Shown here piece after piece: positions 5,514 through 25,941 of a stretch of 34,579 bases of DNA (the stretch's first letter is position 1; each line of letters begins with the position of its first letter). This DNA comes from Verrucomicrobiia bacterium (GTDB taxonomy: Bacteria > Verrucomicrobiota > Verrucomicrobiia > Opitutales > Cerasicoccaceae), in NCBI GenBank assembly GCA_030425485.1, contig JAUIAM010000031.1, positions 1-34,579 of the forward strand. The letters run 5' to 3'. The notes under the pieces are model-generated. The model saw only the letters and a list, made by a program, of their open reading frames with translations. It was not told where the DNA came from and did not search any database. The position numbers and the translations under genes were made by a program.

Positions 5514-7562
5514 ATGTCCCTTTTCTTCACTGACGATACAAAGAAACGACTGAATGTCGCCCGTCGCACCGACCCCGTGAGTGGTTTTTTCTGGGGTGTG
5601 CTGAATCAGGCGGATCACTACGCGGCCTCTCCGGGGCTGGCTGGGTTGGCCGAGGAGGAGCAGTGGTGGTATCAGGTGACGGAATCCCTGACCACCGTTG
5701 CCTGGGCCTGGGCCATCAAGCCCGGTGATAAGCTTGCCTGCTGGCTGCGCGATGCGACTTTGTCCGTCGCGCGTCGTCCGCTGAGTGACTGGGTGGGGCC
5801 TGCGTTTCGTGACCATGCCTCGCAGCCAACGCTGGGGCACCTGGAGACGGCCCATCTGGCCATGTCGCTGGCCGTTGTGCTGGATCTTGCTAGGGGAGTT
5901 TTCTCCGAGGAGGAGCAGCGCGAGCTGACGGAGGCTATCGAGCAGAAGGGCATGCAGTTGTGCAAAAACTGGCTCGATGCCAAACGGCACATCAGTAACT
6001 GGCGTTGCATACTGCTCATGGGCTATGCCGTCCCCGCTGCCGTCCTGAACAAGGCGGAGGCGATGGAGTACGCGGTGCAGGAGTTTGCCCGCTGCGCGGA
6101 CTTCTTCCAGCCTGACGGCTCTTATGGCGAGTCCCTCCAGTACGGTAACTATGCCCAGATGGGGCTGACTTACGCCTACGAGGCATTGGTGCGCCGCGAT
6201 GCGTCGCTGGCCGATCGTCTCTCGATCAAGACGTATGTGCAAAAGGTCAGGTGGGATGCCGCATCGTACTTTTATACCAAGCCCCTGAGCGGGTGGGGAG
6301 CTTATCCCTTGCCGCGCAGTGCGAACTTTGCCGATAGTGCGGCGCTCTATCGTCCGTCTGCAGACAACCTGCTGCACATTGCGGTGCGGGCGGAGCGGGC
6401 ATCACCCGAGGCGGCGGGGCTGGCCCATTGGCTCTTTATCGAGCACTACTTGCCATGTTTTAAGAAGTACTCCCCGGACGGAAACAGCTTTGGCTTTAAG
6501 AATGACGTTGGCTTTCTGACCCTGCCCTTGTTGCTCGAAACGGTTGCCACTCCGCTCTCGCCGGAAGAGGCAGGCTTGAAGCCGGTCGAGGCTTTCTCGT
6601 GTGGCAATGTGCTGGCGCGCAATCGCTTTGGTGGGCGTACTATTTTGGCTGCCCGGACGGGCAACGAACCGCTCCATGCGAAGGCCCACCTGCATGGTGA
6701 TGTGAACAGCTTCATTCTGGTTCACAATGAAGAGCGGTTGCTGGCCGACCCCGGCCACGCCTGCTACCGCAACCTCATTCGCGAGCTTGATGTGGCTACG
6801 CTTTCGCATAACACCTGCACTTTTACGACAGAGTCCGGTTCGCTGCTCCAGCAGAAGCACACCGGGCGCCGCATGATCGAGGCGGACGGGCGCAACGGCG
6901 AGCCGTCGGACAACGGCACCAGGCTGGAGCTGTCCGAGCAAGTCGGGGCGGTCACGGCCATTGTTTCGGAGGCGTCCCGTTTATACGGTGAGCCGATCGA
7001 GGAGTTTACCCGTATCTGGTTGCTTTGCGGCGAGCATGCGCTCTTTGTTATCGATCGCATACGGGCGTCTGAACCCGTACGCACGCACTGGTCCTGGCTG
7101 CTTAATAACCGCGACGGTGCGCTCGACCTGAAAATTCCCAAGTCGGACAGGCTGGTTGCCCGTCGGGGTAATGCCGGAATGAAGCTTTTTCATGTGGGGG
7201 AGGCAAGCATGCCTGCTCCGCAATATGCATACATGCACGACGCCTATGCCCCGCTGCCCGCTCAGCTCGGTGAGGGCAAGCCGGGGAGCGGTCTGCTCGT
7301 GCGCTGGGAGGATGCCCAGGCGCGTAAGTCGCTGTGCCGTGTGCACGCGATTACCGTGGACTCGTCTTCCGCGGTGGCCGGATGGCACCTTAAATTTGAA
7401 GACGGCTATGTGGGTATTATTGAAAGCCCGGATGGCTCACAGGCCTGGAAGCTGAAGCTCGATGCCGAGGCGAATCAGGTCAGCGTGCTCGATACACTGT
7501 CGGGCAAGGAAACATCACTCCTGCATTCAGCGGAGGGTAAATGGAGCATTTTACAGCAATGA
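5514..7562 (+). CDS. Heparinase II/III-family polysaccharide lyase-like protein
   Basis: The 682-residue protein has an N-terminal alpha/alpha-toroid region (about 1-340, with ISNWRCILLMGYAVP and FFQPDGSYGESLQYGNYAQ). A C-terminal beta-sandwich starts near residue 370 and carries the heparinase II/III signature AHLHGDVNSF (H392, H394, D396, N398), then RLLADPGHACY. These lyases cleave uronic-acid-containing polymers by beta-elimination and leave the unsaturated ends that the operon's GH88/GH105 enzyme would remove. No signal peptide is present (MSLFFTDDTKK), which is unusual for a polymer lyase and suggests it acts on imported oligosaccharides. Its stop overlaps the next start as ATGA. The lyase family number and substrate (glucuronan, alginate, glycosaminoglycan or other) cannot be fixed here. 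Confidence 0.85.
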   Translation: MSLFFTDDTKKRLNVARRTDPVSGFFWGVLNQADHYAASPGLAGLAEEEQWWYQVTESLTTVAWAWAIKPGDKLACWLRDATLSVARRPLSDWVGPAFRDHASQPTLGHLETAHLAMSLAVVLDLARGVFSEEEQRELTEAIEQKGMQLCKNWLDAKRHISNWRCILLMGYAVPAAVLNKAEAMEYAVQEFARCADFFQPDGSYGESLQYGNYAQMGLTYAYEALVRRDASLADRLSIKTYVQKVRWDAASYFYTKPLSGWGAYPLPRSANFADSAALYRPSADNLLHIAVRAERASPEAAGLAHWLFIEHYLPCFKKYSPDGNSFGFKNDVGFLTLPLLLETVATPLSPEEAGLKPVEAFSCGNVLARNRFGGRTILAARTGNEPLHAKAHLHGDVNSFILVHNEERLLADPGHACYRNLIRELDVATLSHNTCTFTTESGSLLQQKHTGRRMIEADGRNGEPSDNGTRLELSEQVGAVTAIVSEASRLYGEPIEEFTRIWLLCGEHALFVIDRIRASEPVRTHWSWLLNNRDGALDLKIPKSDRLVARRGNAGMKLFHVGEASMPAPQYAYMHDAYAPLPAQLGEGKPGSGLLVRWEDAQARKSLCRVHAITVDSSSAVAGWHLKFEDGYVGIIESPDGSQAWKLKLDAEANQVSVLDTLSGKETSLLHSAEGKWSILQQ

Positions 7563-8575
7563 AAGCAGCCTATTACAAAGGGAATAAAACGATAACGGTA
7601 GAGGCGGGGAGTCGTGTGGCTCCGGGGCCCGGTGAGGTTCGCCTGGACGTCGCCTATTGTGGCATCTGCGGCACCGATACGCACATCTATCATGGGGCCA
7701 TGGACAAGCGGGTGAAAATGCCGCAGATCATCGGCCATGAAGCCTCGGCCACGGTGGCCGAGCTCGGCGAAGGCGTTACCGGGTTTTCCGTGGGCGACCC
7801 CGTCGTGGTGCGTCCGCTGGACAACCGCCTGGAGACGCCAGCCGACCGCGGCTTTAGTCACGTTTGCAAAGGGCTCAAATTTATCGGCATTGATTCACCC
7901 GGCGCTTTTCAAAACAGTTGGACGGTGCCCGCCTTTACCTTGCACAAGGCGCCAGAGGGAATCGACCTCAAGCTGGCTGCCCTCTGCGAACCGCTGGCCG
8001 TGGCCTGCCATGATGTGCGCCGTGGTCGCGTCAAGCCCGGCGAGCTGGCCGTGGTCATCGGTGGTGGCCCGATCGGTATTCTTGTGGCGCTAGTGGCGAA
8101 GCACGCTGGTGCCCATGTTATCCTTTCGGAAGTGAATGCCTATCGCCGGGAGTTTGCGGCCAAGCTGGGGCTTGAGGCCGTCAACCCGATGGAGACGGAC
8201 CTAGAGGCACTTTGCCAGGAGAAGTCAGGCGGCAGTGGGGCCGATATCGTGTTTGAAGTTTCGGGGGCAAAGGCCGCTGCGGCTACCATGACGGACCTGC
8301 TGGCTATCCGCGGGCGTATCGTTGTCGTGGCGATTTATCCGCTGCCCATCGAAATCAATCTCTTCCATTTCTTCTGGAAGGAACTCGAGATGCTGGGCGC
8401 TCGGGTCTACGAGCCCGAAGACTACGATCAGGCCCTGGAGCTGGTGGCGGCAAAAGCTCTGCCTCTGGAGGCCCTGATTACGGATGTGCAGCCGCTGGAT
8501 AATATCGCGTCTGCTTTTAGCGGTCTGGATTCCAGCTCCGACGCCATGAAGGTCCTAATCGACTGCCGCGCCTGA
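7559..8575 (+). CDS. Zinc-type medium-chain alcohol/polyol dehydrogenase
   Basis: The 338-residue MDR protein has a catalytic zinc site (C37 in CGICGTD, H60-E61 in GHEAS, E144 in CEPLAV) and a Rossmann motif GGGPIG at 168-173. It resembles sorbitol, threonine or L-gulonate-type dehydrogenases and probably oxidises a sugar acid or polyol, or the reverse, with NAD(P). The structural-zinc loop is degenerate: where four cysteines are usual, the stretch 88-105 has only C103. The preferred start at 7559 gives the usual MKAA N-terminus and an ATGA overlap with the lyase gene. An ATG at 7541 has a GGAGGG before it and is an alternative adding six residues. The exact substrate is unknown. Confidence 0.88.
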   Translation: MKAAYYKGNKTITVEAGSRVAPGPGEVRLDVAYCGICGTDTHIYHGAMDKRVKMPQIIGHEASATVAELGEGVTGFSVGDPVVVRPLDNRLETPADRGFSHVCKGLKFIGIDSPGAFQNSWTVPAFTLHKAPEGIDLKLAALCEPLAVACHDVRRGRVKPGELAVVIGGGPIGILVALVAKHAGAHVILSEVNAYRREFAAKLGLEAVNPMETDLEALCQEKSGGSGADIVFEVSGAKAAAATMTDLLAIRGRIVVVAIYPLPIEINLFHFFWKELEMLGARVYEPEDYDQALELVAAKALPLEALITDVQPLDNIASAFSGLDSSSDAMKVLIDCRA

Positions 8576-9417: not shown

Positions 9418-10623
9418 ATGAATCTGACTTACCAGCCGCGTCCAGTTGAAAACAGGTGGTGCGTTCATAGTTACTACAGCTTGTGCCCCTATGCGCCTGA
9501 TGGTTCGGGCAGAATCCTCGTGGGCGGAGCCGATCCGGACACGGGGGAAGGGGAGGTGATTATCCTCTCGCCTGAGGGCAGCGTGCTTGACCGCTTCGGG
9601 CTTCAGCCCGTGTTGCCGAGCTTCTGGCATACGGGCTTTTGGCAAAGCTGGTCTGCGGACTGCCGCTACGTCTACTATCAGTCCGGGACCGGGCTCAATC
9701 CGGAGGTTGTTCGCCGTGAGCTGGCGACGGGTATTGAGGTGCGTGTGAGTGGAGACATGGAGGGCATCCCGCCGTCAGGCGAGCCCGGGTTGAGCTGTAA
9801 CCACGGGTTGCTCTACGCGGCTGGCTACGGTGACGCCGAGGGGCGCTATCGCCCAGAGTTGGCCTCGGTGCCCTTTCAGGCCAGAGACCAGCACGGGATC
9901 AGCATCGTTGATTTTGACCAGGGCATGTCCAGCATGGGCTTGTCCACGGCAGACATTCTCCAACAGCACCCGGACCGGGAAAAAATCATGCAGGCGGACG
10001 AGGCTGTCCGCGAGCGCTTGGGCCCCGATGAGGGGCTGACGCTGATGACCTACTGCGTGCGCTGGAACCCGCAAGGGACGCGCTTCCTCTTCTATTTTGG
10101 CAACCACTGTGTCGATAAACGCCGGGGCGAGCCAAAGCTGGCCTACGTGTTTACCGCCAACCGGGATCTGACGGACATCCACCTGGCCATGGACATGAGC
10201 TTTGATCGGCGCGGTGTACACTGGGCCTGGCAGCCGGATGGCGAGCGCTTGATCGGCTACGGCCCGCGTCCCGAGGACCCGATGCAGACCGGACTGGCCG
10301 AGGTGCGTTACGATGGCTCGGACTACCGTCTGCTCAGCGAGCACGCCAGCGGCGGGCACCCGTCCGTCAGCCCGATTGATGATGACTTGATCGTAACGGA
10401 CGAGGGCACGTTGGAGGGCGGCGCCGTGCTGTTTATTTCGCGCAAAACCGGGCAGGAAACCGCCCGTATTGCCTTGCCAAAATTCGTTGGGGCCAGCGAG
10501 CCCAAGGGCCGCAACCCCATGCGCATCTGCCACCACCCGGTTTTTTCACATGATGGCAAGCGCATCTTGTTTAACAGCCTGCCCGGCAAGTATTCCCAGG
10601 TGAACGAACTCGAGATAGGCTAA
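9418..10623 (+). CDS. Beta-propeller protein, possible oligogalacturonate-lyase-like (PL22-type) enzyme
   Basis: The 401-residue protein consists of repeated WD40/TolB-like blades, for example WSADCRYVYYQSG, VRWNPQGTRFLFYFGN, WAWQPDGERLIGYG and HPVFSHDGKRILFNS. This matches the seven-bladed propeller of oligogalacturonate lyases (about 390 residues, cytoplasmic, beta-elimination of short oligouronides) and related uncharacterised propellers. There is no signal peptide. The frame is open from 9130 inside kduD, but the ATG at 9418 is the first sensible start, with homology-like sequence beginning MNLTYQPRP. It sits between kduD and an esterase gene, so action on uronic oligosaccharides is plausible. 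I cannot confirm the metal-binding His residues, so the lyase assignment is tentative; a sugar-binding propeller is the alternative. Confidence 0.6.
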   Translation: MNLTYQPRPVENRWCVHSYYSLCPYAPDGSGRILVGGADPDTGEGEVIILSPEGSVLDRFGLQPVLPSFWHTGFWQSWSADCRYVYYQSGTGLNPEVVRRELATGIEVRVSGDMEGIPPSGEPGLSCNHGLLYAAGYGDAEGRYRPELASVPFQARDQHGISIVDFDQGMSSMGLSTADILQQHPDREKIMQADEAVRERLGPDEGLTLMTYCVRWNPQGTRFLFYFGNHCVDKRRGEPKLAYVFTANRDLTDIHLAMDMSFDRRGVHWAWQPDGERLIGYGPRPEDPMQTGLAEVRYDGSDYRLLSEHASGGHPSVSPIDDDLIVTDEGTLEGGAVLFISRKTGQETARIALPKFVGASEPKGRNPMRICHHPVFSHDGKRILFNSLPGKYSQVNELEIG

Positions 10624-10665
10624 ACCCGGCTATGCCTTTGGACGTTTTATAGAAAGCACCGTGTC

Positions 10666-11460
10666 ATGAGCAGTGAGGAGAATTCGTCAGAGGCCATCGT
10701 GCCCGAGCGCATCATTACCTATAAGGAAGTCGATGGTCGGTCCCTGGCCATGCACCTGTTCGAGCCGTCAACCGATGGAAGTGAAGGGCGCCCTTGCGTG
10801 CTGCTGATTCACAGTGGTGGGTGGGTCAACGGCAGCCCGGAGCGCTACTACCACATCGCCAAGCCGCTGCGCGAGATGGGGCTGGTGGTCGCTTGCATCC
10901 AGTACCGCCTCTATGACCCGAAGGCGAACCCGCCCGTTTCCGTTCCTGATGCGGTGGAAGATGCACAGGACGCGATGCACTACCTGAAACAGCATGCCGA
11001 TAGTCTCGGGCTCGACCGGGAGCGCACCATTGCCTGCGGTGGCTCGGCCGGGGCGCACCTGGTTGCAGGTCTGGCTTTGTTTGACTGCGAGCACATCGAC
11101 GCCGCGCTCCTGCGCCCCAAGGTCATGGTCCTCTTCAACCCCGTTATCGATACCTCTGCCGAGGGCTATGGCCATCAGAAGCTGGGTGCAGATTGGGAGG
11201 CGTATTCGCCGCTACACCGTTTGCAGGCGGGACTCCCGCCGACATTGATTTTTCATGGGACGGGGGACCGCACGACACCCTACGGTGGCTCTGCGGCCTT
11301 TAGCCAGCGAGCACAGCAGAACGGCGATGTATGCGTGCTGATTACCCATGACGGGGGCGATCATGGCTACTACAACGCACAGCCGCTGTTTGACCAGACG
11401 ATGCAGCGCGTGCGCGAGTTTCTGGTCGAGCACAACATTTTAGAAAAAGGGGAGGGCTAA
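10666..11460 (+). CDS. Alpha/beta-hydrolase esterase (BD-FAE/acetyl-esterase type)
   Basis: The 264-residue hydrolase has an oxyanion-hole motif HSGGW (49-53), nucleophile Ser127 in GGSAGAH, Asp201 in HGTGDRTTP and His233 in GGDHGYY, so the catalytic triad is complete. The architecture is that of small carbohydrate esterases that remove acetyl or feruloyl groups from oligosaccharides. It lacks a signal peptide and so probably deacetylates imported oligosaccharides in the cytoplasm. It sits 42 bases after the propeller gene and ends 2 bases before an acyltransferase gene, so these two are likely translationally linked. The ester removed is inferred, not shown. Confidence 0.85.
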   Translation: MSSEENSSEAIVPERIITYKEVDGRSLAMHLFEPSTDGSEGRPCVLLIHSGGWVNGSPERYYHIAKPLREMGLVVACIQYRLYDPKANPPVSVPDAVEDAQDAMHYLKQHADSLGLDRERTIACGGSAGAHLVAGLALFDCEHIDAALLRPKVMVLFNPVIDTSAEGYGHQKLGADWEAYSPLHRLQAGLPPTLIFHGTGDRTTPYGGSAAFSQRAQQNGDVCVLITHDGGDHGYYNAQPLFDQTMQRVREFLVEHNILEKGEG

Positions 11461-12056: not shown

Positions 12057-12266
12057 TTGCGGTAGCGCCTTGTGGCGATGAGTTGTTGCCCAATGCACGA
12101 GGCTTTGGGTATGTAAATATGCACGCATAGATCATTTCCCGATCGATAAGTGCATCTGGAAAACCTTGTTGGGGATATGCCGTCATTTGATGGGTAGCTG
12201 TGTGTCAGTGAATCGCGCTCAGTATTGAAGACACAGCCTAGTGACCACCGGACATTTTTTCTTTAC

Positions 12267-12299
12267 ATATGTCAGCATATATAGATTATGCCAGCATAT
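12267..12299 (+). promoter_or_regulatory. Tandem operator-like repeats before the GntR-type gene
   Basis: ATATGTCAGCATAT (12267-12280) and TTATGCCAGCATAT (12286-12299) match at 12 of 14 positions with a 19-base period. Each is an imperfect inverted repeat of the form ATATG-N4-CATAT. The second overlaps the proposed start codon at 12298. This layout fits autoregulation by the downstream regulator; binding is inferred. Confidence 0.5.
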
Positions 12300-13404
12300 G
12301 AAGTCGGATACTTCCTCAAGTGCTGATGATGTGTTTCAGATTTTAGAAACCAGAATTCGAACCGGACGTGTGGCTGTGGGTAGCTACATGCCGACTGAAA
12401 AGGAGCTGGCGTCGCAGTTTGGCTGTGGTCGCCACGTGGTGGGGCAGGCCCTGAACCGCCTTGCTCATGACGGCATGATCGAGCGTCGCAAGCGTGTGGG
12501 GACGCGGGTCATTAGCAGTACGCCAACGCGTGAGCGTGCGGCCGTCGAGTTGGACGCGATAGGGTTTGTCTACCCGAGTGATCTGCACGAAGGCGTGCGC
12601 CGCATATTGCAGGGGTTTCAGGAGGTGGCGCACGAGGCCAAGCAGCGCGTTGTCATGCTGAGCACGGGGATGGATCACAAGAAAGAGGCGGAGATTGTCG
12701 GGCGTCTGGCCGAGTTTGATGTCAAGGGGGTGGTTGCTTATCCTGTTTTGCCCAAGCTGGAGGATCGCCTGTACTTTGGCCAGATGCTGCATAATTGTAG
12801 CTTCCCGGTTGTGCTGGTGGACACGAATCTGCCCGGCTTTGGGGAAAACTCGGTCATCCACGATGGCTTTCATGCGGGCTGGACGATGACAAACCATCTG
12901 CTGGGCCGTGGGCTCAAGCGAGTCGGTTTTCTTGCGAACTACGCCTGGACCGCAGTCATGCGCGAGACCTACCTGGGCTATCGTCAAGCCATGGAGGCGG
13001 CGGATATCACGATCGAGCCGAACTTCGTCCTGCTGGATGATTTTATTGAGCCGTCTTACGAGGAGCCGCTTTCGGTGGGGGATGATTTTGTGAAGAAATT
13101 TCTGCTCAAAGCGATGGAGCAAAAGCTGGAAGCCGTTGTTTGTGGGGACGACTTCCTGGCCCTGCTTTGCCTGAAGGCTGCGCGTGAACTCGGCATTTCG
13201 GTGCCGGATCAGTTCAAGGTCGTGGGGATATCCGACTACGCAATTTCCTCCCAGAGCGACATCCCCTTGACGACCTACCGGACCTCGTTTGAGGAGATCG
13301 GTCGTCAGTCTTTCCATCTTTTGAACCGTCTCCTCAAGGGCGAGCAGCCCTCCGAGCGAAACCTCCAGATCCGCGGCAGCATCGCGGTCAGAAAGAGTGG
13401 CTAG
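12298..13404 (+). CDS. GntR-family regulator with LacI-like sugar-sensing domain
   Basis: The 368-residue protein has an N-terminal GntR winged helix (about 10-72: VFQILETRIRTGRVAVGSYM, TEKELASQFGCGRHVVGQAL, MIERRKRVGTRV). A periplasmic-binding-protein-like domain follows (about 80-368, with VVLVDTNLPG, FLANYAWTAVM and VVGISDYAISS). This is the AraR-like arrangement found in sugar regulators. The frame is open from a GTG at 12241, but the ATG at 12298 gives a normal GntR N-terminus and leaves the tandem repeats in the leader, so I chose it. The next gene encodes an alpha-L-rhamnosidase, so a rhamnose-containing inducer is a reasonable guess. Family is firm; the ligand is unknown. Confidence 0.93.
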   Translation: MKSDTSSSADDVFQILETRIRTGRVAVGSYMPTEKELASQFGCGRHVVGQALNRLAHDGMIERRKRVGTRVISSTPTRERAAVELDAIGFVYPSDLHEGVRRILQGFQEVAHEAKQRVVMLSTGMDHKKEAEIVGRLAEFDVKGVVAYPVLPKLEDRLYFGQMLHNCSFPVVLVDTNLPGFGENSVIHDGFHAGWTMTNHLLGRGLKRVGFLANYAWTAVMRETYLGYRQAMEAADITIEPNFVLLDDFIEPSYEEPLSVGDDFVKKFLLKAMEQKLEAVVCGDDFLALLCLKAARELGISVPDQFKVVGISDYAISSQSDIPLTTYRTSFEEIGRQSFHLLNRLLKGEQPSERNLQIRGSIAVRKSG

Positions 13405-18470: not shown

Positions 18471-20414
18471 CTAAGCGATAATGGTCGGGGTCGATGCCTG
18501 TCGGTGCACGAGCGTAATGCTCTGCGTGTGTTCATGGGGCCAGAGTTGGAGTGGTCGCGCGTTTAGCTCTTCGATACTATCAAGCTTATCGTCGAGGTAC
18601 AGCTCCAACTTAACCCGGAGTTTTTGCAGCCGCGCGTGCAGGGTGACGTAGCGCTTCTCGATCACGTCCCAACCATGATAGCGAAACGTCCGATGCCAGG
18701 CCTTTTCGTGGAGCTCCTGCAGGTGTGCCACGCGCTCGACGAGCGGTATAAGGACATCGCGACTGATGCGGCTGAGCGTGGAGGAGTCGCCGCGCTGGTA
18801 GGCACTGCGCAAAGTAAGGTGGAGTTCGGTTTTCCAGGCAAGAGCCTCAGCCATTTTCTGCATAAATTGCAGGCGCTCGTCCCTTGGGTGCTGGAGGGTG
18901 GCCTCTGCCAACTGCTCCGTAACATTACGAAAGTGGTCCAAGAATTCAGGCAGGATCTGGGCTTCCAGGTGACCGAGGAGCGGGTCTTGCCAGAATATCC
19001 ATTTGCTGGCGTTGGCCTCGTAGTCGGTTTCTGCTTCGACAGGAATGAGGTCCAGCCCGCTTCCGCACATCCAGGACTGCAAGTCGTGGTCCACGCTGCC
19101 GAGGAAATTTTCGCTCAGTGAAGTCTCATCCGGGGCTGCCTGCCCGTAGGCCATGTCGGCAAACATCTGGACGGCGGGCAGGGCGGAGAACGGGTCGCAC
19201 TCCATGCCATCGTCGCCCCACATGGTGACGAGTACCTCGTCCAGTTCCTGCCGCACGGCGGCCGCCATGCCTGCGTGTATGGCATGGATGGAGTGGGGGA
19301 GCTGCGCCCAAAAGCGGTTCCAGGTCCAGATGCCTGCGGCAAAGATGGGTTGCTGGCCGAGCTGGCGGTGGCGCGAAATCCATTCGTCGTAGAAGTCTGT
19401 GTCCGTGTGGTAGTAGTCCCAGTAAACCAGTTGGGCCTGCGGGGGAATGCTCTGGGCAAGGGAAGGGTCGATGCGGGATTGCGTGTCGTAGTAGTTATTC
19501 GTTTTCGAGCTGAGGCGAAAAAACATATCGCTCCAGATCATGGGCTTGAGGCCGTGGCGCTCGCAGGTCTCGACGGTCTGCTGCAGGTGTTCGCAGAGGA
19601 TTTCGAACGGCGCCCGTAGACCGTTCTTTAGCCGATAGATGCCCGAGCCGATGCCGTGGGCTTCATCCATCCCGATGTGGATGCGCTTGCTGCGGAAAGG
19701 TGCGGAGACGGCGGTGATCATTTTCTCCACAAAAGCGGTGACGCGCTCGTCGCCCACGAGCAGGACGCTGTCGGTGTCCCGCAAGGCTTGGAAGTGCGGC
19801 CACTGCAGGACTTGGGCCAGGTGGCCAAGCGTCTGGATGCAGGGGATGACTTCTATCCCGAAGTGCGCGGCGTACTGATCGATTGTCCGCAGATCATCTT
19901 GCGAGTACCCCCCTCTGCCGTACCCAAAGAGCGGCTCGTCCGGAATCTCGAAGGTGTCCTCCGTGTAGAGCATGAGCTGGTTAAGGCCCATGAGGGCAAA
20001 GTGCCGAATGAAGCCGCGCACGCTCTCGAGCTTGAGCACGCCGTTGCGGGAGACATCCAGCATGGCTCCGATCGAGCTAAAGGCGCTGGTTTCTTTAAAG
20101 GATTCGGGTGGGGTGCCAGCCTGGAGTTTACCCATTACTATGCCGAAGGCGCGAAAGGCCGCTGCGGGAGTGGAGTAGGTGATTGTGATGTTTTGCGCAT
20201 CGACTTCCACCGCGAAGCCCGGTCTTTGGCCCGCCTGTTTATTAAAGGTAAACTGCCAGCCTTCCTGCTCGGTGGTGAAGCGCTGAGGGAAGGCGTGCTC
20301 GATCTCCCGCAGGCCCGCAGCTAGCTCACTCGGGGCGTGCGCGAAACCGCAGCATATGAGCTGGAGGGCTTGGCCAGAGTGTGGGGATTGAGCTGTGTTG
20401 CTTGCTGTTGGCAT
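18471..20414 (-). CDS. Beta-N-acetylhexosaminidase-like enzyme, GH20 family
   Basis: The 647-residue protein has an N-terminal GH20b-like alpha/beta domain (about 1-100). A TIM barrel follows, with MLDVSRNGVLKLESVRGFI, LNQLMLYTEDTFE and the catalytic Asp-Glu pair in IHIGMDEAH (D250-E251). An alpha-helical C-terminal region of about 200 residues completes it. This is the HexD-like form of GH20, which uses substrate-assisted catalysis to remove terminal N-acetylhexosamines. No signal peptide is present. It lies 30 bases downstream of the secreted TIM-barrel gene and 28 bases upstream of the pseudopilin gene, so it belongs to the same operon. It is quite different from the second GH20-like protein at 23.5 kb, suggesting separate linkages or substrates. 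Confidence 0.88.
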   Translation of the reverse strand: MPTASNTAQSPHSGQALQLICCGFAHAPSELAAGLREIEHAFPQRFTTEQEGWQFTFNKQAGQRPGFAVEVDAQNITITYSTPAAAFRAFGIVMGKLQAGTPPESFKETSAFSSIGAMLDVSRNGVLKLESVRGFIRHFALMGLNQLMLYTEDTFEIPDEPLFGYGRGGYSQDDLRTIDQYAAHFGIEVIPCIQTLGHLAQVLQWPHFQALRDTDSVLLVGDERVTAFVEKMITAVSAPFRSKRIHIGMDEAHGIGSGIYRLKNGLRAPFEILCEHLQQTVETCERHGLKPMIWSDMFFRLSSKTNNYYDTQSRIDPSLAQSIPPQAQLVYWDYYHTDTDFYDEWISRHRQLGQQPIFAAGIWTWNRFWAQLPHSIHAIHAGMAAAVRQELDEVLVTMWGDDGMECDPFSALPAVQMFADMAYGQAAPDETSLSENFLGSVDHDLQSWMCGSGLDLIPVEAETDYEANASKWIFWQDPLLGHLEAQILPEFLDHFRNVTEQLAEATLQHPRDERLQFMQKMAEALAWKTELHLTLRSAYQRGDSSTLSRISRDVLIPLVERVAHLQELHEKAWHRTFRYHGWDVIEKRYVTLHARLQKLRVKLELYLDDKLDSIEELNARPLQLWPHEHTQSITLVHRQASTPTIIA

Positions 20415-20444: not shown

Positions 20445-21461
20445 CTACTCCGTGTGCGAGGCATCCCACTGCTCGAGCATGGGCCGCGCCGTGCGGTAGC
20501 AATGCAGGAAGATGCCACCGTAGCCCGGGGTGCCCTGTTGGTGGGCATTCAGCTCGCGGATGGCTTCAACCAACAGCACGGGGTCGCGGTCGTGGAAGGT
20601 GATCTGCGGGGTTTCGTCGAGGGGAACGGTCTCGATGGAGAGGTAGACCTTCTTGTCTGTGCGCCCGGCGTAGTCGAGCTCCTCCTTGCCGATGTCGGAG
20701 GTGGAGTTGTGCCCCGTCATGTGCGTGCGGTAGGACATGATGCCCATGAAGTCGGACATGTCCTGGATGTGCTCGTCAACGCCCTTGGTGGTGCCGTTGT
20801 ACTCGATAAGAAACTCGCTGCGCCCGCTGTACCAAAAAGGGATGTCGTGCGCGATGGTCATGGAGGGGTCTGCCGCCTGAACCGAGGCTCTGATCTCGGT
20901 CATGGTGTCGAGGAGTTCGAGTAAAACCTGGGTTTTGTCACCCTGCTTCCAGCGCGTGGTCACGTAGGGCTCGATGTCGTAGTGGACGCCGGAGAAGCGG
21001 GCGTCTGCGGGCTGCTTTAGCTGAAAGGCCAGCAGCGCATCAAGACGGGCCAGCGTGTCGTCGAGATTCTCGGCAAAGCCCATCTCTCCCGCGCCGTCGA
21101 GTGCCTCGACTTTGACCCCTGCCTTGTGGGCGGCGCTGAGCAGCGCGCTCCATGCCTCGGGGGTGCTGAGGCGGTAGCCCTGCCCGTCCTTATCAAAGCG
21201 TACCTGCACGAATATCCGCGTGATGCCAAACTTCTGGCAGAAGGCGATCAAGGCCTGCCGCTCCTGTGGGTTCGTCACCTGCTCTTCGCGCCAGACCCAC
21301 ATGCCGATGTCCGCACCGGGAGCGAGTAAGCTTGAGCTGGCGGAGTCGGCATATTTTCCCGCTGCGGCAGTGGGGCAGGAGGCCACGGCATTATCGGCTG
21401 AGGCAGATAAGGCCAAGAGTGAAGCGCCGAGGGTGAAGGTTTTCAAAGCGAGTATTTTCAT
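20445..21461 (-). CDS. Secreted TIM-barrel protein, GH18-like
   Basis: The 338-residue protein begins with a signal peptide (MKILALKTFTLGASLLALSA, likely cleavage around 20-28). The mature part shows alternating strands and helices of a TIM barrel: IGMWVWREEQV, ITRIFVQVRFDKDG, AHKAGVKVEALDG, FSGVHYDIEPY, FMGIMSYRTHMTG and KKVYLSIETV. The strand-4 pattern GVHYDIEPY (D162, E164) resembles the DxxDxDxE active-site strand of GH18 chitinase-type enzymes, although only part of that motif is present. Export suggests periplasmic or outer-surface action on an amino-sugar polymer. The gene sits between a small secreted protein and a GH20 gene with gaps of 37 and 30 bases. An uncharacterised non-GH18 TIM-barrel family is the main alternative. 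Confidence 0.65.
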   Translation of the reverse strand: MKILALKTFTLGASLLALSASADNAVASCPTAAAGKYADSASSSLLAPGADIGMWVWREEQVTNPQERQALIAFCQKFGITRIFVQVRFDKDGQGYRLSTPEAWSALLSAAHKAGVKVEALDGAGEMGFAENLDDTLARLDALLAFQLKQPADARFSGVHYDIEPYVTTRWKQGDKTQVLLELLDTMTEIRASVQAADPSMTIAHDIPFWYSGRSEFLIEYNGTTKGVDEHIQDMSDFMGIMSYRTHMTGHNSTSDIGKEELDYAGRTDKKVYLSIETVPLDETPQITFHDRDPVLLVEAIRELNAHQQGTPGYGGIFLHCYRTARPMLEQWDASHTE

Positions 21462-21498: not shown

Positions 21499-22116
21499 CT
21501 AGTCTTTCGCGGTGATGGTGTCGATATAGACGTCCTGACGCACGCCGGCGGTGTTTAGGTTTTCAAAGCGCAGGCGGAGGTTGGAGACTTGGGAGAGCGT
21601 TTCGCGCAAGGAACTGCTGCCGCTTTCCCGCACCATCTCATTCTCGGAGAGTTTGAAGATAATGGTCTGGTAGTGCTTGGATTGTGGAAGTGTCTTGAGA
21701 GACGAGTCGGTCTGCCAGATGGAGCCATCCGGGCCGCCCTGCACAACAAGACGCATGCTGGTAGGGCGATCGGGGCTGGAGAAACCCGCAGCATCAGGGG
21801 AGAGCATCAGCACTACCTCTACGGCGTCGAATTCACTCAGGTCCTGCTTGCCGGTGGGCAGGGATTTTAAGCGCATGTTGGCGTTGTCGCCTGCGTCCCA
21901 GTTGAGTTGAAACAGGGCGGTATGGGTTTTGTTGCGCCCACTGTTCAGGTCGAGCGTGGCGGGGCCGGACGAGGCCGCATTGCCGAAAGCATTCCATTGC
22001 GACTGTAGCTGCTCGCTTGAGCCGTATGCGCTGAAGTCCTCGATCAGCAGCTCCTTGGCGCAGGCCCAACCCGTGAGTCCGAGGAGGAGCAGGATGCTCA
22101 ATTCTCTGTGCTTCAT
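21499..22116 (-). CDS. Secreted protein of unknown family, paralogue of the PEP-CTERM protein at 25.3 kb
   Basis: The protein is about 205 residues with a signal peptide (KHRELSILLLLGLTGWACA; cleavage after ACA likely). The mature part starts KELLIEDFSAYGSSEQLQSQ and looks like an all-beta jelly-roll domain. It shares a clear pattern with the protein at 25261-25941: (I/M)xxF(S/D)xY, QxxWNxFGxAASSG, NWxxGxNANM, SIWQT, LSExEM and NLRLRFEN. Unlike that relative it ends at the last beta strand (VYIDTITAKD) and has no anchor. The ATG at 22116 is chosen because it starts the signal peptide; the frame stays open to 22152. It is the first gene of the operon with the TIM-barrel, GH20 and pseudopilin genes. 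Carbohydrate binding is a guess. Confidence 0.7.
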   Translation of the reverse strand: MKHRELSILLLLGLTGWACAKELLIEDFSAYGSSEQLQSQWNAFGNAASSGPATLDLNSGRNKTHTALFQLNWDAGDNANMRLKSLPTGKQDLSEFDAVEVVLMLSPDAAGFSSPDRPTSMRLVVQGGPDGSIWQTDSSLKTLPQSKHYQTIIFKLSENEMVRESGSSSLRETLSQVSNLRLRFENLNTAGVRQDVYIDTITAKD

Positions 22117-22160
22117 GAGTTCATACGATAGCACGGATAAGCGTGGATGCAATAAAAAAG

Positions 22161-22173
22161 TTCATTCAATGAA
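22161..22173. promoter_or_regulatory. Candidate ROK-regulator operator, site 1
   Basis: TTCATTCAATGAA is a perfect inverted repeat (arms TTCATT/AATGAA around a central C), 44 bases upstream of the operon start at 22116. The same core occurs near two other genes of this locus. Binding by the ROK protein is inferred. Confidence 0.55.
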
Positions 22174-22211
22174 ATAATTGGGCGTGTGTATGTCCATTTC
22201 GTTATGCACGG

Positions 22212-23303
22212 CTACTTGCTGCGGTTGAGGATGGACTCGCCCAGGCGCGCTTCCAGGTACTGGTGGAGGGCCTTGAGACCTGCGCCGTGGGCAATGCCGC
22301 GAATGCCCTGATCGGATAGCATCATGCTAAAACTGCGGTTGCTGAAGGGGATGAGTGAGGTCTTGAGGGCCTTGGAGAACTGCTCGTAGTGCTTCTGTGA
22401 CAGGGTGTTTTCTTCGGAGACGATGATGAGGTGGTTCAGGTCGAGCAGGTTGATGACTGAGGCGAAGTGGTTGCCGAAATTCTGGAAGAAGGGCATGGGG
22501 TGGGGAGTGTCGGGGGCCTCTTCAGCGGGCAGGAGCACGGCGTCGAGCTCGCCTGCGGCATGGTTGGCACCGCGGTAGACTTTGCCGTCGAGGTTGAGGC
22601 ACATGCCGACCGAGTATTCTTCCTTGGCCTGCCGGGTCTTGACTTTGCTGACCAGAAGGTAGCCGGAGTTGTGCAGGTCCAGGTCGGGGTTGAAGTGCTG
22701 TTCGAGGTAGCTGCCGAAGTTGACGTTGCGGTCGATGAGGACGGGCAACTGCAACTGCTCGGCCAGGAGGTCGCGTATGGGGTAGTTCTCCACCTGGAGG
22801 GCGCGCGAGAGCACGGTTACGCCGGACTCGGCATCGACAATACCGGGGACGGCCAGTCCGACGCCCTTGATGTCGCGCATGCTGAGGCCGGCGTCATCTG
22901 TCATGCTGCGGACTTTATTGGCTACGTGTGCGAGCGTGCTTTTCCCCCAGGTTCTTTTCATGCGCTGCTCGGAGAGGATGGCTCCGCTGCTGTCAATGAG
23001 GCAGATGTCCTGGGTGGTGGCATGCAGGTTGATGCCAACGGTGACGGCAATCTTTGGGTTGATGCGCAGGGCGGTTTCGCGTGGGCCCACGCCTCCGCGC
23101 TCGATGCTTTCACCCTCCACGATGATGCCCAGCTTGAGAAACTCGGAAATGATATTTGAGATCGTGGACGCCTGTAGCTCCGTGGCCAGCACGATGCCGC
23201 GCTGGGAGTAGGCCTTGCTCGAGTAGATGAGCCTGAGTACGCGCAAGCGGTTGGCGATCTGCGACTGCTTGCGGTTGTTCTTGGGCTGGGTGGGTGTAAT
23301 CAT
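22212..23303 (-). CDS. ROK-family transcriptional repressor
   Basis: The protein is about 363 residues. It has an N-terminal winged helix (about 10-75, with RLRVLRLIYSSKAYSQRGIV, TELQASTISNIISEFLKLGI and GVGPRETALRINP) and a ROK domain (about 75-350) with GVGLAVPGIVDAESG and NHAAGELDA. Such proteins repress amino-sugar or glucose-type genes (NagC/Mlc/XylR group). Two ROK hallmarks are degraded: the first phosphate-binding loop reads GINLHATTQDICLIDSSG, and the CxCGxxGCxE zinc cluster is absent. This protein is therefore very likely a sensor without kinase activity. The start at ATG 23303 replaces an upstream TTG at 23348. It is divergent from a GH20-like gene and probably controls both flanks. 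NagC-like sensing of an amino-sugar derivative is inferred. Confidence 0.9.
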   Translation of the reverse strand: MITPTQPKNNRKQSQIANRLRVLRLIYSSKAYSQRGIVLATELQASTISNIISEFLKLGIIVEGESIERGGVGPRETALRINPKIAVTVGINLHATTQDICLIDSSGAILSEQRMKRTWGKSTLAHVANKVRSMTDDAGLSMRDIKGVGLAVPGIVDAESGVTVLSRALQVENYPIRDLLAEQLQLPVLIDRNVNFGSYLEQHFNPDLDLHNSGYLLVSKVKTRQAKEEYSVGMCLNLDGKVYRGANHAAGELDAVLLPAEEAPDTPHPMPFFQNFGNHFASVINLLDLNHLIIVSEENTLSQKHYEQFSKALKTSLIPFSNRSFSMMLSDQGIRGIAHGAGLKALHQYLEARLGESILNRSK

Positions 23304-23420
23304 CGGAGGGTGTGCTGGTAACGCGCGGCAGCGCGGCCTGACCGTCAAAGACTGTTCGGCATGCTTGATGAACTTAATGGATATTCAAAACAATTCATTG
23401 ACAGATGTCGAATTTAATAT

Positions 23421-23434
23421 TTCATCGAATGGAA
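23421..23434. promoter_or_regulatory. Candidate ROK-regulator operator, site 2
   Basis: TTCATCGAATGGAA lies in the divergent spacer between the ROK gene (start 23303) and the GH20-like gene (start 23499). It matches site 3 at 12 of 14 positions. A further TTCATTG half-site is at 23394-23400. The site is well placed to control both genes. Binding is inferred. Confidence 0.5.
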
Positions 23435-23498
23435 CAATTCGCCCTGGGTTTTTCCAGTAATAATGGTATGTGGGCCGGAGCGGAGATGACTTTTTGAT

Positions 23499-24983
23499 AT
23501 GGCACACACAGGAACAACGGCCAGGCCTCGCATGCGGGGGTTTATGATAGACTGCGCGCGCTGTCTGGAGAATCGAGAGTACTACCGGAGGCTGATCCGT
23601 TTCATGGCACAAAGGGGGATGAATACCCTCATCTGGCATTTCTCCGACGACCAGGGGCTGAGCGTGGACTTCCCCAGTGTGCCTGGCCTGGCTGATCCTC
23701 ACGCCTACTCCGAGCAGGAGGTGCGGGAGCTCGTGGCCTATGCGCGGGACCACGGCGTGGACATCATACCTGAGCTTGAGACGCTGGGCCACTCGCGCTA
23801 CATCACCCGTCACGCCCGCTATCGCCACCTGCGTGAGTGCGACGAGGATTTTACGGCCATTTGTCCGGTCCACCCGGAGACGCGCAAATTGATGCGGGAG
23901 TTGATCGCTGACGTCGCGCGCATGTTCTCCTCGCCCTGGGTCCATGTTGGGATGGACGAGGTAAAGCTCGGCGACCACCCGCTTACCCAGGAGGCCTTGA
24001 AGACGCAGTCCAAGACCGAGCTTTGGGCGGATTACGTGCGCTTCATCCACGGCGAGGTGACCGCGCAGGGTAAGCAGATGATGATGTGGCTCGACCAGCC
24101 CAGCTACGAAACCGGGATACTGGAAACCTTACCGCGCGATATCCTGCTCGCCCTGTGGCAATACACACCCGATGTCCCCCCGACGCTGGCCCAGACGGTT
24201 TTGGATGAAGGCTTTGATGCGCTGTTGTGCCCGGCTTTAATCACTTACGACCAGCAGGCTTATCCCGGGTCGATTGCGCTACCCAACATCGAGCGCATGA
24301 GCTCTTTTCAAACGCTGAGCGGCAAGGGCCGCGTGCGGGGGATTGCCACGACAATATGGACCCCGATGCGTTATCTGCATGACTGCCTCTGGCCTGGCAT
24401 CTCAGCCGCAGCGGCTATGATGGAGGCCGCGGGTGGGGTGGATATGCACGCCGTGATGGCGGATTACCTGCGCGACTTTTACGGGGTGGAGGCAGGCAAG
24501 GAGGCCGCCGATGCGCTGGTTAAGTGCTTCGAATTAGCCCCCGAACGCAAGGAGTACCTGGGGCTGCTGAAGGCAGATGACATTGAGCAGAGCGAGGGCG
24601 AGCTGGAGTCGAAGGTGGCTGCCTGGCTGGCTATTTCGACAACGCTTCAGCGGCTGTATCCGGCGGTTAGCTGCGAGCGACAAGCCTTTGGCTCGCTGGT
24701 GAGTTTTATTCGCTTCATGGCTTACCTGTATCGACGCGGGGCTCTGCTGAAATGTCCGCGGGAAGACGAGACGGCTTGGTTGGCGGTGTTGCAGGAGGGG
24801 CACTCCTGGCTGGGCACGCTTGAGTCGATATGGGACCGCGAGCGATTCAAGGATGATAAGCGCAAGGTCATGCCCGTGTACGCCTGGGAGCAGAACGAGT
24901 ACCTCATTATTTGTCTGCGTCAAAGTCTGACACAACTGGCACCACGCTGCGAAGCAGCGACCACGGCGGCGGATGCGAGCTAG
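23499..24983 (+). CDS. GH20-like glycosidase
   Basis: The 494-residue protein starts almost directly with the GH20 barrel: MRGFMIDCARCLENREYYRR, MNTLIWHFSDDQGLSVDFPS, GVDIIPELETLGHSRYI, then WVHVGMDEVKLG with the catalytic-type Asp-Glu pair (D153-E154). ATTIWTPMRYLHD and an alpha-helical C-terminal region follow. It lacks the N-terminal GH20b domain and any signal peptide, so it is a short cytoplasmic GH20-type enzyme probably acting on N-acetylhexosamine-containing oligosaccharides. It is transcribed divergently from the ROK gene with a candidate operator between them. The ATG at 23499 is preceded by GGAG at a long spacing (13 bases); an internal ATG at 23532 is possible. The substrate is uncertain. 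Confidence 0.82.
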   Translation: MAHTGTTARPRMRGFMIDCARCLENREYYRRLIRFMAQRGMNTLIWHFSDDQGLSVDFPSVPGLADPHAYSEQEVRELVAYARDHGVDIIPELETLGHSRYITRHARYRHLRECDEDFTAICPVHPETRKLMRELIADVARMFSSPWVHVGMDEVKLGDHPLTQEALKTQSKTELWADYVRFIHGEVTAQGKQMMMWLDQPSYETGILETLPRDILLALWQYTPDVPPTLAQTVLDEGFDALLCPALITYDQQAYPGSIALPNIERMSSFQTLSGKGRVRGIATTIWTPMRYLHDCLWPGISAAAAMMEAAGGVDMHAVMADYLRDFYGVEAGKEAADALVKCFELAPERKEYLGLLKADDIEQSEGELESKVAAWLAISTTLQRLYPAVSCERQAFGSLVSFIRFMAYLYRRGALLKCPREDETAWLAVLQEGHSWLGTLESIWDRERFKDDKRKVMPVYAWEQNEYLIICLRQSLTQLAPRCEAATTAADAS

Positions 24984-25211
24984 GCCGTGGCTGGCGTGCT
25001 GGGCCATTGCCGAGAGTAACTGCTTGAGTGGATGCGCGATACTTCTGACCCGCTCCTTGAACAAGCTCGTGTCGTGGAGTGTCTGCTGGCTTGAGCTATG
25101 TCTTGCCATGCACTCATGGCTTCTCGCTCGGTAAGTTTTCCGCACGTGCAGTCGCTCGGGTAGGAGGCACGGTATGATTTTTTCCGTTGACAAAGTAGCG
25201 CGAGGATAATA

Positions 25212-25225
25212 TTCCATTGAATGAA
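25212..25225. promoter_or_regulatory. Candidate ROK-regulator operator, site 3, with promoter-like elements
   Basis: TTCCATTGAATGAA on the plus strand is TTCATTCAATGGAA on the other, the same core as sites 1 and 2. It lies 35 bases before the PEP-CTERM gene. A perfect TTGACA is at 25187-25192 and a TAATAT hexamer at 25207-25212, giving a short 14-base spacer, so the promoter is uncertain. A repressor on this site would block initiation. Binding is inferred. Confidence 0.5.
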
Positions 25226-25260
25226 ATAAAACAGAAGTGATTTCCTAACTATCCAGGCTT

Positions 25261-25941
25261 ATGAAACTCAAGATACCGACTATTCTCTCACTGGTGCTCG
25301 CCACCGGTCTATCTGTCGCCAACGCGCAGACCCTGATGATCGATAATTTCGACGGTTACGCAGATACAGTTGAACTGCAAAACAACTGGAACTCTTTCGG
25401 CACGGCGGCCTCTTCTGGAGCGCCCACGCTTGGTGCGGGCGAGGGCGTTGCTGGCAGTAATGCAGCAGTCTACAGCCTTAACTGGTTCGATGGCAACAAT
25501 GCCAACATGCGCCGGATCAACCTCGGTGGTCTCGACCTCAGTGCCTATAGCGCTCTCGATGTGACCATGTACGTGGAGACCGACGCGGGCAATGACGCCC
25601 CGACGGCATCGACTGTGCTGAAGGTAGCTATCCAGTCCAGCGACAGCACGATCTGGCAGACGAGTGCCACCTTTGCGCTCGCACCCAATGTGGACAGTTA
25701 CTCGATTTTGTCCTTCAACCTGTCGGAGGCGGAGATGGATCGCGTGGCAGGTTCAGGGACCTTTGCCGATACACTCGCTGATGTGGATAACCTTCGCCTG
25801 CGCTTTGAAAATGCCCAGGAGGTAAATGTGGGACAGACGGCCTATGTTAGCTCCATCGCAGCCATCCCCGAGCCGAGCACCTATGCGCTGCTCTTCGGCG
25901 GCTTGATGATGAGCCTGGCGCTGGTGCGTCGCCGCCGCTAG
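25261..25941 (+). CDS. PEP-CTERM-sorted secreted protein, jelly-roll-like
   Basis: The 226-residue protein has a signal peptide (MKLKIPTILSLVLATGLSVA, cleavage near ANA-QTL) and an all-beta middle. Its C-terminus is PEPSTYALLFGGLMMSLALV followed by RRRR, a textbook PEP-CTERM sorting signal (Pro-Glu-Pro, hydrophobic segment, Arg-rich tail) for exosortase-type processing and surface or matrix localisation. The middle shares WNxFGxAASSG, NWxxGxNANM, SIWQT and NLRLRFEN with the protein at 21499-22116, so they are paralogues. No Shine-Dalgarno sequence precedes the ATG. The candidate ROK site lies upstream and a strong terminator downstream, so it is a single-gene unit co-regulated with the rest of the locus. 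Function unknown; carbohydrate binding or adhesion is a guess. Confidence 0.88.
   Translation: MKLKIPTILSLVLATGLSVANAQTLMIDNFDGYADTVELQNNWNSFGTAASSGAPTLGAGEGVAGSNAAVYSLNWFDGNNANMRRINLGGLDLSAYSALDVTMYVETDAGNDAPTASTVLKVAIQSSDSTIWQTSATFALAPNVDSYSILSFNLSEAEMDRVAGSGTFADTLADVDNLRLRFENAQEVNVGQTAYVSSIAAIPEPSTYALLFGGLMMSLALVRRRR

What the first reader, a model, noticed from the sequence alone, without database searches (positions are those of the whole stretch)
22161..25225. A shared TTCATTCAATG(G)AA site defines a possible ROK regulon
Three promoter regions around one ROK gene carry the same core: 22161-22173 (perfect palindrome), 23421-23434, and 25212-25225 on the opposite strand. Each lies within about 120 bases of a start codon, and together they cover every transcription unit of the locus: the secreted-protein operon, the repressor/GH20 pair and the PEP-CTERM gene. 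I noticed no other copies in the window. This ties otherwise separate genes into one unit.
Basis: partly seen in the sequence, partly recalled or inferred. Interest (0 to 1): 0.6.

Follow-up and report, generated by a model that had tools for sequence, protein, structure and literature searches.

The report
ROK-controlled amino-sugar regulon operator
A short mirror-image DNA word sits in front of every gene group of a sugar-degrading locus in a Verrucomicrobia bacterium and its relatives, and is very probably the landing site of the repressor encoded in the middle, which appears to control the use of glycans that contain amino sugars.

Summary
All three sites are at the stated coordinates. They are copies of a 25-bp palindrome, consensus AATTATTTCATT-N-AATGAAATAATT. 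In the 3.81-Mb genome the exact degenerate core occurs at one other place only, inside an open coding frame. A matrix trained on five other genomes gives the window sites 37.2, 33.9 and 27.7; the next-best place in the window scores 10.8.

Six of 10 same-family genomes, the window's own included, have a full-length ROK orthologue (the five others 47-62% identical). Each has 3 to 5 such sites on its ROK contig. The sites are 69-81% identical, their flanks 23-37%.

In relatives the same operator precedes GH20-nagB-nagA and transporter genes, pointing to amino-sugar catabolism, like NagR of Bifidobacterium or ChiR of Thermotoga. Two secreted proteins of the locus are paralogues with a predicted fold like carbohydrate-binding modules; one carries PEP-CTERM.

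Binding by this ROK protein, repression and the effector are inferred. Genome G006, without a close orthologue, also has several palindromes, so score alone does not separate true from stray sites. New member of a known kind.

The parts
22155..22179 (.). Operator 1, 25-bp palindrome (core 22161-22173), 44 nt upstream of the secreted-protein operon, between it and the 3' end of the ROK gene
   Evidence: (held-out score 37.2)
23415..23439 (.). Operator 2 (core 23421-23433), shared by the divergent ROK and GH20 genes; TTGACA ends 17 nt before the core on the GH20 side
   Evidence: (held-out score 27.7)
25207..25231 (.). Operator 3 (core 25213-25225), 35 nt upstream of the PEP-CTERM gene; TTGACA ends 20 nt before the core
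   Evidence: (held-out score 33.9)
22212..23303 (-). ROK-family regulator (363 aa, P0004), the presumed repressor
   Evidence: Pfam ROK 4.3e-15 (run with a longer start); PDB relatives XylR and Lmo0178, and Mlc by profile; alignment of six orthologues
23499..24983 (+). GH20 family (beta-N-acetylhexosaminidase-like), no signal peptide evident by reading the translation
   Evidence: Pfam 5.8e-34; PDB hexosaminidases; translation
25261..25941 (+). Secreted CBM-like beta-sandwich protein with PEP-CTERM tail (P0002)
21499..22116 (-). Secreted paralogue of P0002 without PEP-CTERM (P0003), first gene of the operon
   Evidence: 40% identity over 186 aligned positions
20445..21461 (-). Secreted TIM-barrel glycosidase-like protein (P0005), second gene of the operon
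   Evidence: no Pfam or NCBIfam family at E 0.001; predicted fold near Cwp19, GH18 and GH191 structures
18471..20414 (-). GH20 with GH20C C-terminal domain, third gene of the operon
   Evidence: Pfam 1.9e-40 for the GH20C C-terminal domain, 5.3e-13 for GH20

Best explanation
The three sites are operators of the ROK regulator encoded between them. Without inducer the ROK protein binds the 25-bp palindrome, which lies at the promoter, and blocks transcription of three units: the secreted operon (CBM-like protein, TIM-barrel hydrolase, GH20C), its own gene with the divergent GH20, and the PEP-CTERM CBM-like protein. An amino sugar released from the glycan (most likely GlcNAc, GlcNAc-6P or a GalNAc counterpart) releases it. 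The regulon captures and trims, and in relatives also imports and metabolises (nagB, nagA), a glycan that contains N-acetylhexosamine. Shown by computation: the sites, their rarity in the genome, their conservation together with the ROK gene, and their target genes. Inferred: binding by this protein, repression, and the identity of inducer and glycan.
For: Rarity in the own genome. Leave-one-genome-out matrix scores: 23 of 23 sites in six genomes at 24.1-37.7, best other place in the same loci 18.2. A profile search of 12 whole genomes finds 23 places at E 0.135 or better (better strand) on the ROK contigs of the six genomes; 21 were in the training set, two (G009 C159:11068 and 11185) were not; outside those contigs the best in the six genomes is E 0.22 (the tool scored only the best 150 first-look candidates per genome). 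G089, with a 33% identical ROK, has three untrained places, all on its ROK contig (E 0.079, 0.29, 0.53). Site identity 0.69-0.81 against 0.23-0.37 in flanks. The CBM-like secreted family has exactly two strong members (E 1e-38 or better) in each of the six genomes, and all 12 have an operator in front. In two Cerasicoccus genomes and G009 the GH20 gene behind an operator is followed by nagB and nagA; G368 has ROK, GH20C, nagB, nagA and a symporter in a row. A TTGAC hexamer ends 17-24 nt before the core at 14 of 29 promoter sides, 0.94 expected from shuffles, which puts the core on or just after the -10 place. The position aligned with the Asp that is catalytic in ROK kinases (role recalled) is Asn193, invariant in six orthologues.
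Against: No binding or expression data. A strict sigma-70 scan finds no promoter at any of the three sites (3 found in the region, 1.7 expected); 15 of 29 promoter sides lack TTGAC, in the window those of ROK and of the secreted operon. In the window's own genome nagA and nagB lie on another contig without an operator, near a LacI-type gene, and the operator-bearing units of the window contain no transporter, so the amino-sugar assignment leans on relatives. G006, without a close ROK orthologue, has 8 exact matches to the symmetric core TTCAYTNARTGAA (reversed control 2), more than any ROK-positive genome (1-4), and its best profile matches (E 0.128 and 0.139) equal the weakest true site (0.135). 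In G368 the one listed profile match is at chance level (E 1.96). The evidence comes from one family plus two distant genomes.
Confidence: 0.85

Rival explanations
1. The sites bind another regulator, for example a LacI- or GntR-type protein, and the ROK gene is only one of its targets.
For: A GntR/LacI-type regulator (12241-13404) lies in the same window, and L055 has a LacI-type gene. G006 has similar palindromes without a close ROK orthologue.
Against: By reading the ORF lists, ROK is the only regulator seen at the sites in all six loci (not every ORF was put through a family search). Sites clustered at one locus go with the ROK orthologue in 6 of 6 genomes and no such cluster was seen in the other four. 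T-rich left and A-rich right ends are described for ROK sites (PMC4856308, passages).
Confidence: 0.08
2. ROK acts as an activator at these sites rather than as a repressor.
For: ROK factors can be activators or repressors (PMC9599254, passage).
Against: Where a TTGAC hexamer is present (14 of 29 promoter sides) the core lies 17-24 nt after it, on or just after the -10 place, a place for blocking; the ROK gene itself carries a site.
Confidence: 0.1
3. The regulon serves another hexosaminyl sugar, such as GalNAc or a mixed or modified glycan, and nagA/nagB joined it secondarily.
For: GH20 enzymes take GlcNAc or GalNAc (recalled); the TIM-barrel model also resembles GH191 galactosaminidase structures; nagA and nagB are outside the regulon in the window's genome.
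Against: nagA and nagB are coupled to the operator or the ROK gene in three same-family genomes and in G368.
Confidence: 0.3
4. The three sites are chance AT-rich similarities.
For: As 13-mers with up to 3 mismatches they do not clearly exceed the window's expectation.
Against: Genome-wide rarity, held-out scores and conservation.
Confidence: 0.01

Closest known systems
NagR (ROK) regulon of Bifidobacterium longum subsp. infantis (PMC9599254, passages)
   Same: ROK regulator with palindromic operators; regulon holds nagA, nagB and genes for GlcNAc-containing glycans; [quoted passage not shown]
   Different: Different phylum; operator sequences were not compared; the CBM-like pair and PEP-CTERM protein were not seen in the passages read; effector here untested
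ChiR (ROK) of Thermotoga maritima (PMC3750489, passages)
   Same: ROK regulator of a chitobiose transporter, a chitobiose hydrolase and GlcNAc catabolic genes
   Different: No secreted CBM-like pair or PEP-CTERM protein in the passages read; its operator was not seen
NagC and Mlc of Escherichia coli
   Same: ROK regulators; T-rich left and A-rich right operator ends (PMC4856308, passage); sequence relatives
   Different: NagC model scores 50.2 bits against a cut-off of 650; the zinc cysteine motif of the family (recalled) is missing here
Carbohydrate-binding modules of families 11, 28, 30 and 27
   Same: Predicted structure of P0002 aligns to CBM11 (1v0a, Z 15.5, 2.8 A over 157 residues), CBM28 (3acf, Z 14.2) and CBM30 (1wmx, Z 13.2)
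   Different: No sequence match to a CBM family in Pfam, none in the PDB up to E 10; a complex I assembly factor scores as high (Z 16.4, 4.2 A)

Membership tests
ROK-family transcriptional regulator | ROK domain | tested here: met
   PF00480, 4.3e-15, 56.5 bits against a cut-off of 22.9
ROK-family transcriptional regulator | N-terminal region aligned with the DNA-binding end of solved ROK regulators | tested here: met
   phmmer alignments to 2hoe, XylR and Lmo0178 begin at residues 17, 18 and 8; no separate HTH family was reported by Pfam
ROK-family transcriptional regulator | Zinc cysteine motif CxCGxxGCxE (recalled) | tested here: not met
   Absent from P0004 and its five orthologues by reading the alignment; the ROK domain score passes nonetheless
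ROK sugar kinase | Catalytic Asp (position recalled) | tested here: not met
   Aligned position is Asn193, invariant in six orthologues
NagC equivalog | NCBIfam NF047937 cut-off | tested here: not met
   50.2 bits against 650
ROK-controlled amino-sugar regulon (NagR/ChiR type) | Palindromic operator upstream of the regulator and hexosaminidase genes | tested here: met
   that ROK binds it is not tested
ROK-controlled amino-sugar regulon (NagR/ChiR type) | nagA and nagB in the regulon | tested here: inconclusive
   Behind an operator-GH20 unit in two Cerasicoccus genomes and G009, behind ROK in G368; on another contig without a site in the window's genome
ROK-controlled amino-sugar regulon (NagR/ChiR type) | Amino-sugar effector | not testable with these tools
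   needs binding assays
Carbohydrate-binding module (P0002, P0003) | CBM-type beta-sandwich fold | tested here: met
   P0002 model, mean pLDDT 87.8; CBM11, 28 and 30 rows at Z 13.2-15.5; P0003 by homology only; a shared fold does not show function
Carbohydrate-binding module (P0002, P0003) | Glycan binding | not testable with these tools
   no assay
PEP-CTERM protein (P0002) | C-terminal sorting signal | tested here: met
   TIGR02595 24.6 bits, cut-off 16; Pfam 20.2 bits, just under its 20.7 cut-off
GH18 (P0005) | Sequence family match | tested here: inconclusive
   no Pfam or NCBIfam match; fold search ranks GH18 chitinases among other TIM barrels

The most novel reading that the evidence does not exclude
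A family-specific inducible glycan-capture system: a ROK repressor co-regulates two paralogous single-domain lectin-like proteins, one sorted by PEP-CTERM and one freely secreted, with a new secreted TIM-barrel glycosidase and hexosaminidases, so that a PEP-CTERM protein here serves as an inducible surface glycan collector, functionally comparable to SusD-like proteins.
Probability: 0.35. Interest if true: 0.6.

Novelty: new member of a known kind. Interest (0 to 1): 0.42.

Why it matters
It gives a concrete operator and target list for a ROK regulator in Puniceicoccales; among the papers listed (13 of 13; 15 of 3,160; 4 of 4) none, by title and start of abstract, describes a ROK regulon in this phylum (open-licence PMC only). 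It also ties a PEP-CTERM protein, a class whose roles are mostly unknown (recalled), to a probably sugar-induced system: 12 of 12 members of one paralogous family carry the operator.

Tried and rejected
Mismatch search in the window alone: weak, replaced by genome-wide and held-out tests. A first matrix test gave window scores 36.7, 33.1 and 27.2 and next-best 11.1, then stopped with an error in the simulated control; it was repeated in corrected form with more sites. Near-matches elsewhere in the own genome: a 16-base form with up to two mismatches gave 69 rows (29 forward, 40 reverse) against 24 reversed-control rows. Eleven of these rows are one identical 16-mer; five copies were fetched and lie in a dispersed repeat between open frames. 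Of the other places, 8 stretches were fetched and only L035 was read; the remaining near-matches were not examined.

Orthologues beyond the family: 8 of 372 order genomes at E 1e-50, six of them the close set. The genome-contig scan confirmed 4 loci of 80 pattern stretches. PDB sequence search with the CBM-like family found nothing up to E 10. For the TIM-barrel protein one PDB sequence, 10yv ('Putative GH97'), matched at 4.6e-14, while fold search ranked Cwp19, GH18 and GH191 structures at TM about 0.5; its family is left open. Weaker places near ROK in the two Cerasicoccus genomes (16.4 and 18.2) were not counted as operators. The window's weak half-match at 23394-23406 was rejected, as the matrix does not list it. 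In G368 the matrix gives 22.9 to a place upstream of ROK and 27.3 to one before the GH20-like region, but the profile search listed only the second, at E 1.96; neither is claimed as an operator. An activator role and another binding protein remain as rivals.
Full report
OBSERVATION. The three sites are present as described. Gaps from core to start codon are 44 nt (operon starting at 22116), 117 nt (ROK), 65 nt (GH20) and 35 nt (PEP-CTERM gene). In the window alone a 13-mer with up to three mismatches is not remarkable (10 against 5.65 expected; 11 of 100 shuffles reach it). In the whole genome (3,813,870 bases, 62 contigs) the exact degenerate core TTCATYSAATGRA is found at four places. Three are these sites; the fourth, C56:34310, lies inside a 290-codon open frame that by my reading of its sequence looks like an alpha/beta hydrolase (no family search was made). 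The reversed pattern gives none.

CONSERVATION. Seven of the 10 genomes of the family match the ROK protein at E 0.001 or better. Six, the window's own included, have a full-length orthologue, the five others 47-62% identical; the seventh, G006, has only a weak match (E 9.7e-5). Scanning stretches around the five other orthologues showed near-palindromes with the same core at each, in front of the same genes. Nineteen aligned sites define a 25-bp palindrome with an uninformative centre; positions 8 and 9 on either side of the centre, which lie outside the core used to pick the sites, carry 1.1-1.3 bits. With each genome held out in turn its sites score 24.1-37.7 (23 of 23 sites, six genomes); the best other places in those loci are 18.2 and 16.4, both beside ROK in Cerasicoccus, then 10.8 in the window. 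Mean pairwise identity at fixed offset (six genomes, 18 sites) is 0.81, 0.79 and 0.69 across the 25 bp for the three gene groups, against 0.23-0.37 in the flanks. The sites had been picked by their cores, which inflates the core figure.

SPECIFICITY. A sequence profile of 21 sites, both orientations, was run on 12 whole genomes; the tool scored the best 150 first-look candidates of each genome, or all where there were fewer. Distinct places on the ROK contig: G000 3, G003 4, G004 4, G005 3, G007 4, G009 5, in all 23, at E 0.135 or better on the better strand. Twenty-one were in the training set; two in G009 were not. Elsewhere in these six genomes the best is E 0.22 (G004 C5). In the four family genomes without a full-length orthologue the best are G006 0.128, G001 0.262 and G002 1.33, and G008 has none. 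Plain patterns tell the same with a blemish: exact matches to TTCAYTNARTGAA number 1 (G000), 4 (G003), 4 (G004), 4 (G005), 4 (G007) and 3 (G009), but also 8 in G006 (reversed control 2), 2 in G001, 2 in G002 and 0 in G008. So score or count alone does not separate true from stray sites; clustering at one locus, in front of the same genes, does. G089, whose ROK is 33% identical, has three places (E 0.079, 0.29, 0.53), all on its ROK contig. G368 (32%) has one at chance level (E 1.96), on its ROK contig and before the region matching GH20.

NAMES. Cerasicoccus is in Cerasicoccaceae, Puniceicoccales, Opitutia, Verrucomicrobiota. Of 372 order genomes searched, 8 match at E 1e-50: the six plus G089 and G368.

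GENES. In the stretches of all six ROK contigs are ROK, GH20, two CBM-like paralogues, the TIM-barrel protein and GH20C. The paralogues (40% identical in the window) occur twice in each of the six genomes at E 1e-38 or better, once with and once without the PEP-CTERM tail. All other matches are weak (E 2.8e-6 or worse), mostly limited to the C-terminal part, a few longer (G003 C7, G002 C4). All 12 strong members have an operator in front; for one, the PEP-CTERM gene of G004, the mechanically chosen start codon lies inside the site, and homology begins after it. The predicted structure of P0002 (mean pLDDT 87.8) is a beta-sandwich close to CBM families 11, 28 and 30, although a complex I assembly factor scores as high, so function is not shown. 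The TIM-barrel protein has no Pfam or NCBIfam family; its model (mean pLDDT 79.1) resembles Cwp19, GH18 and GH191 structures at TM about 0.5.

PATHWAY. In both Cerasicoccus genomes the GH20 gene behind an operator is followed by nagB, nagA and a UgpC-type ATPase, and ROK is followed by a fusion of solute-binding protein and permease and by a second permease. In G009 nagB and nagA also follow GH20. In G005 a sodium symporter follows the PEP-CTERM gene; in G007 and G009 it has its own operator. G368 has ROK, GH20C, nagB, nagA and a symporter in a row. G007 has a second ROK gene, 32% identical, right after nagB and nagA. In the window's genome nagA and its closest nagB are on contig C11 near a LacI-type gene, without an operator. 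The outer parts of the regulon therefore change while the core of ROK, hydrolases and CBM-like proteins stays.

MECHANISM. TTGAC plus one base ends 17-24 nt before the core at 14 of 29 promoter sides (divergent sites counted on both sides), against 0.94 expected in mononucleotide shuffles; it is there at 6 of 6 PEP-CTERM genes and, in the window, at GH20 and the PEP-CTERM gene but not at ROK or the secreted operon. The core then covers or directly follows the -10 place, as a repressor site would. Against this, a strict promoter scan finds none of these promoters. In P0004 the position of the kinase's catalytic Asp (role recalled) is Asn193, invariant in six orthologues, so it is unlikely to be a kinase. 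GlcNAc and its phosphates are effectors of NagR in Bifidobacterium (PMC9599254, passages); the effector here is a guess by analogy.

COMPARISON. It works like NagR of Bifidobacterium (PMC9599254, passages) and ChiR of Thermotoga (PMC3750489, passages). ROK operators with T-rich left and A-rich right ends are described in PMC4856308 (passages). The original papers on Thermotoga ROK regulators and on NagC/Mlc operators were not held. By the listings alone (titles and starts of abstracts), no paper on a ROK regulon of Verrucomicrobia or Puniceicoccales appeared; one search listed 15 of 3,160.

Noticed in passing
G000 C11:74659, C27:19787, C33:291311, C40:43745, C43:7, C49:36584, C53:7, C56:183679, C57:18031, C57:213952, C58:3238: Identical 16-mer ACTTATTCAATGAACT eleven times; the five copies read (L167, L170-L173) lie in a dispersed, imperfect repeat of roughly 130 bp between open frames, and two copies start at base 7 of a contig.
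   Followed up: partly
L056:9659-12403; L057:5768-8512: A 914-aa protein fuses an extracellular solute-binding domain to an ABC permease domain; the following 622-aa permease has a stretch resembling GH42 (run on L056; L057 is 86% and 81% identical).
   Followed up: no
L056:8481 and L057:9668: Weaker operator-like places (16.4 and 18.2) exactly 115 bp from the main operator beside ROK in both Cerasicoccus genomes, about eleven helical turns, possibly for looping.
   Followed up: no
L059:2955 and 3055; L123:8069 and 8186: In G007 and G009 the divergent CBM-like gene and sodium symporter gene each have their own operator, 100 and 117 bp apart.
   Followed up: partly
L060:5713-8741: G007 has a second, 32% identical ROK gene right after nagB and nagA, which suggests a split of an ancestral regulon between two ROK paralogues.
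   Followed up: partly
L056:5259-8360, L057:9837-12920, L058:12288-15386: A conserved protein of about 1030 aa with a prepilin-like N-terminus (by reading) sits directly behind an operator in three genomes; the L056 copy has no Pfam or NCBIfam family.
   Followed up: no
L099:1044-1934, 6884-7690, 10291-10968: G089, from another family of the order, has three CBM-like paralogues around its ROK gene and an ABC transporter related to that of Cerasicoccus.
   Followed up: partly
G006 C1:489950, 2050387, 2074888, 2081741, 3455777, 3621096, 3758819, 4235980: Eight exact palindromes of the type TTCAYTNARTGAA (reversed control 2) in a genome without a close ROK orthologue; they may belong to another regulator.
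   Followed up: no
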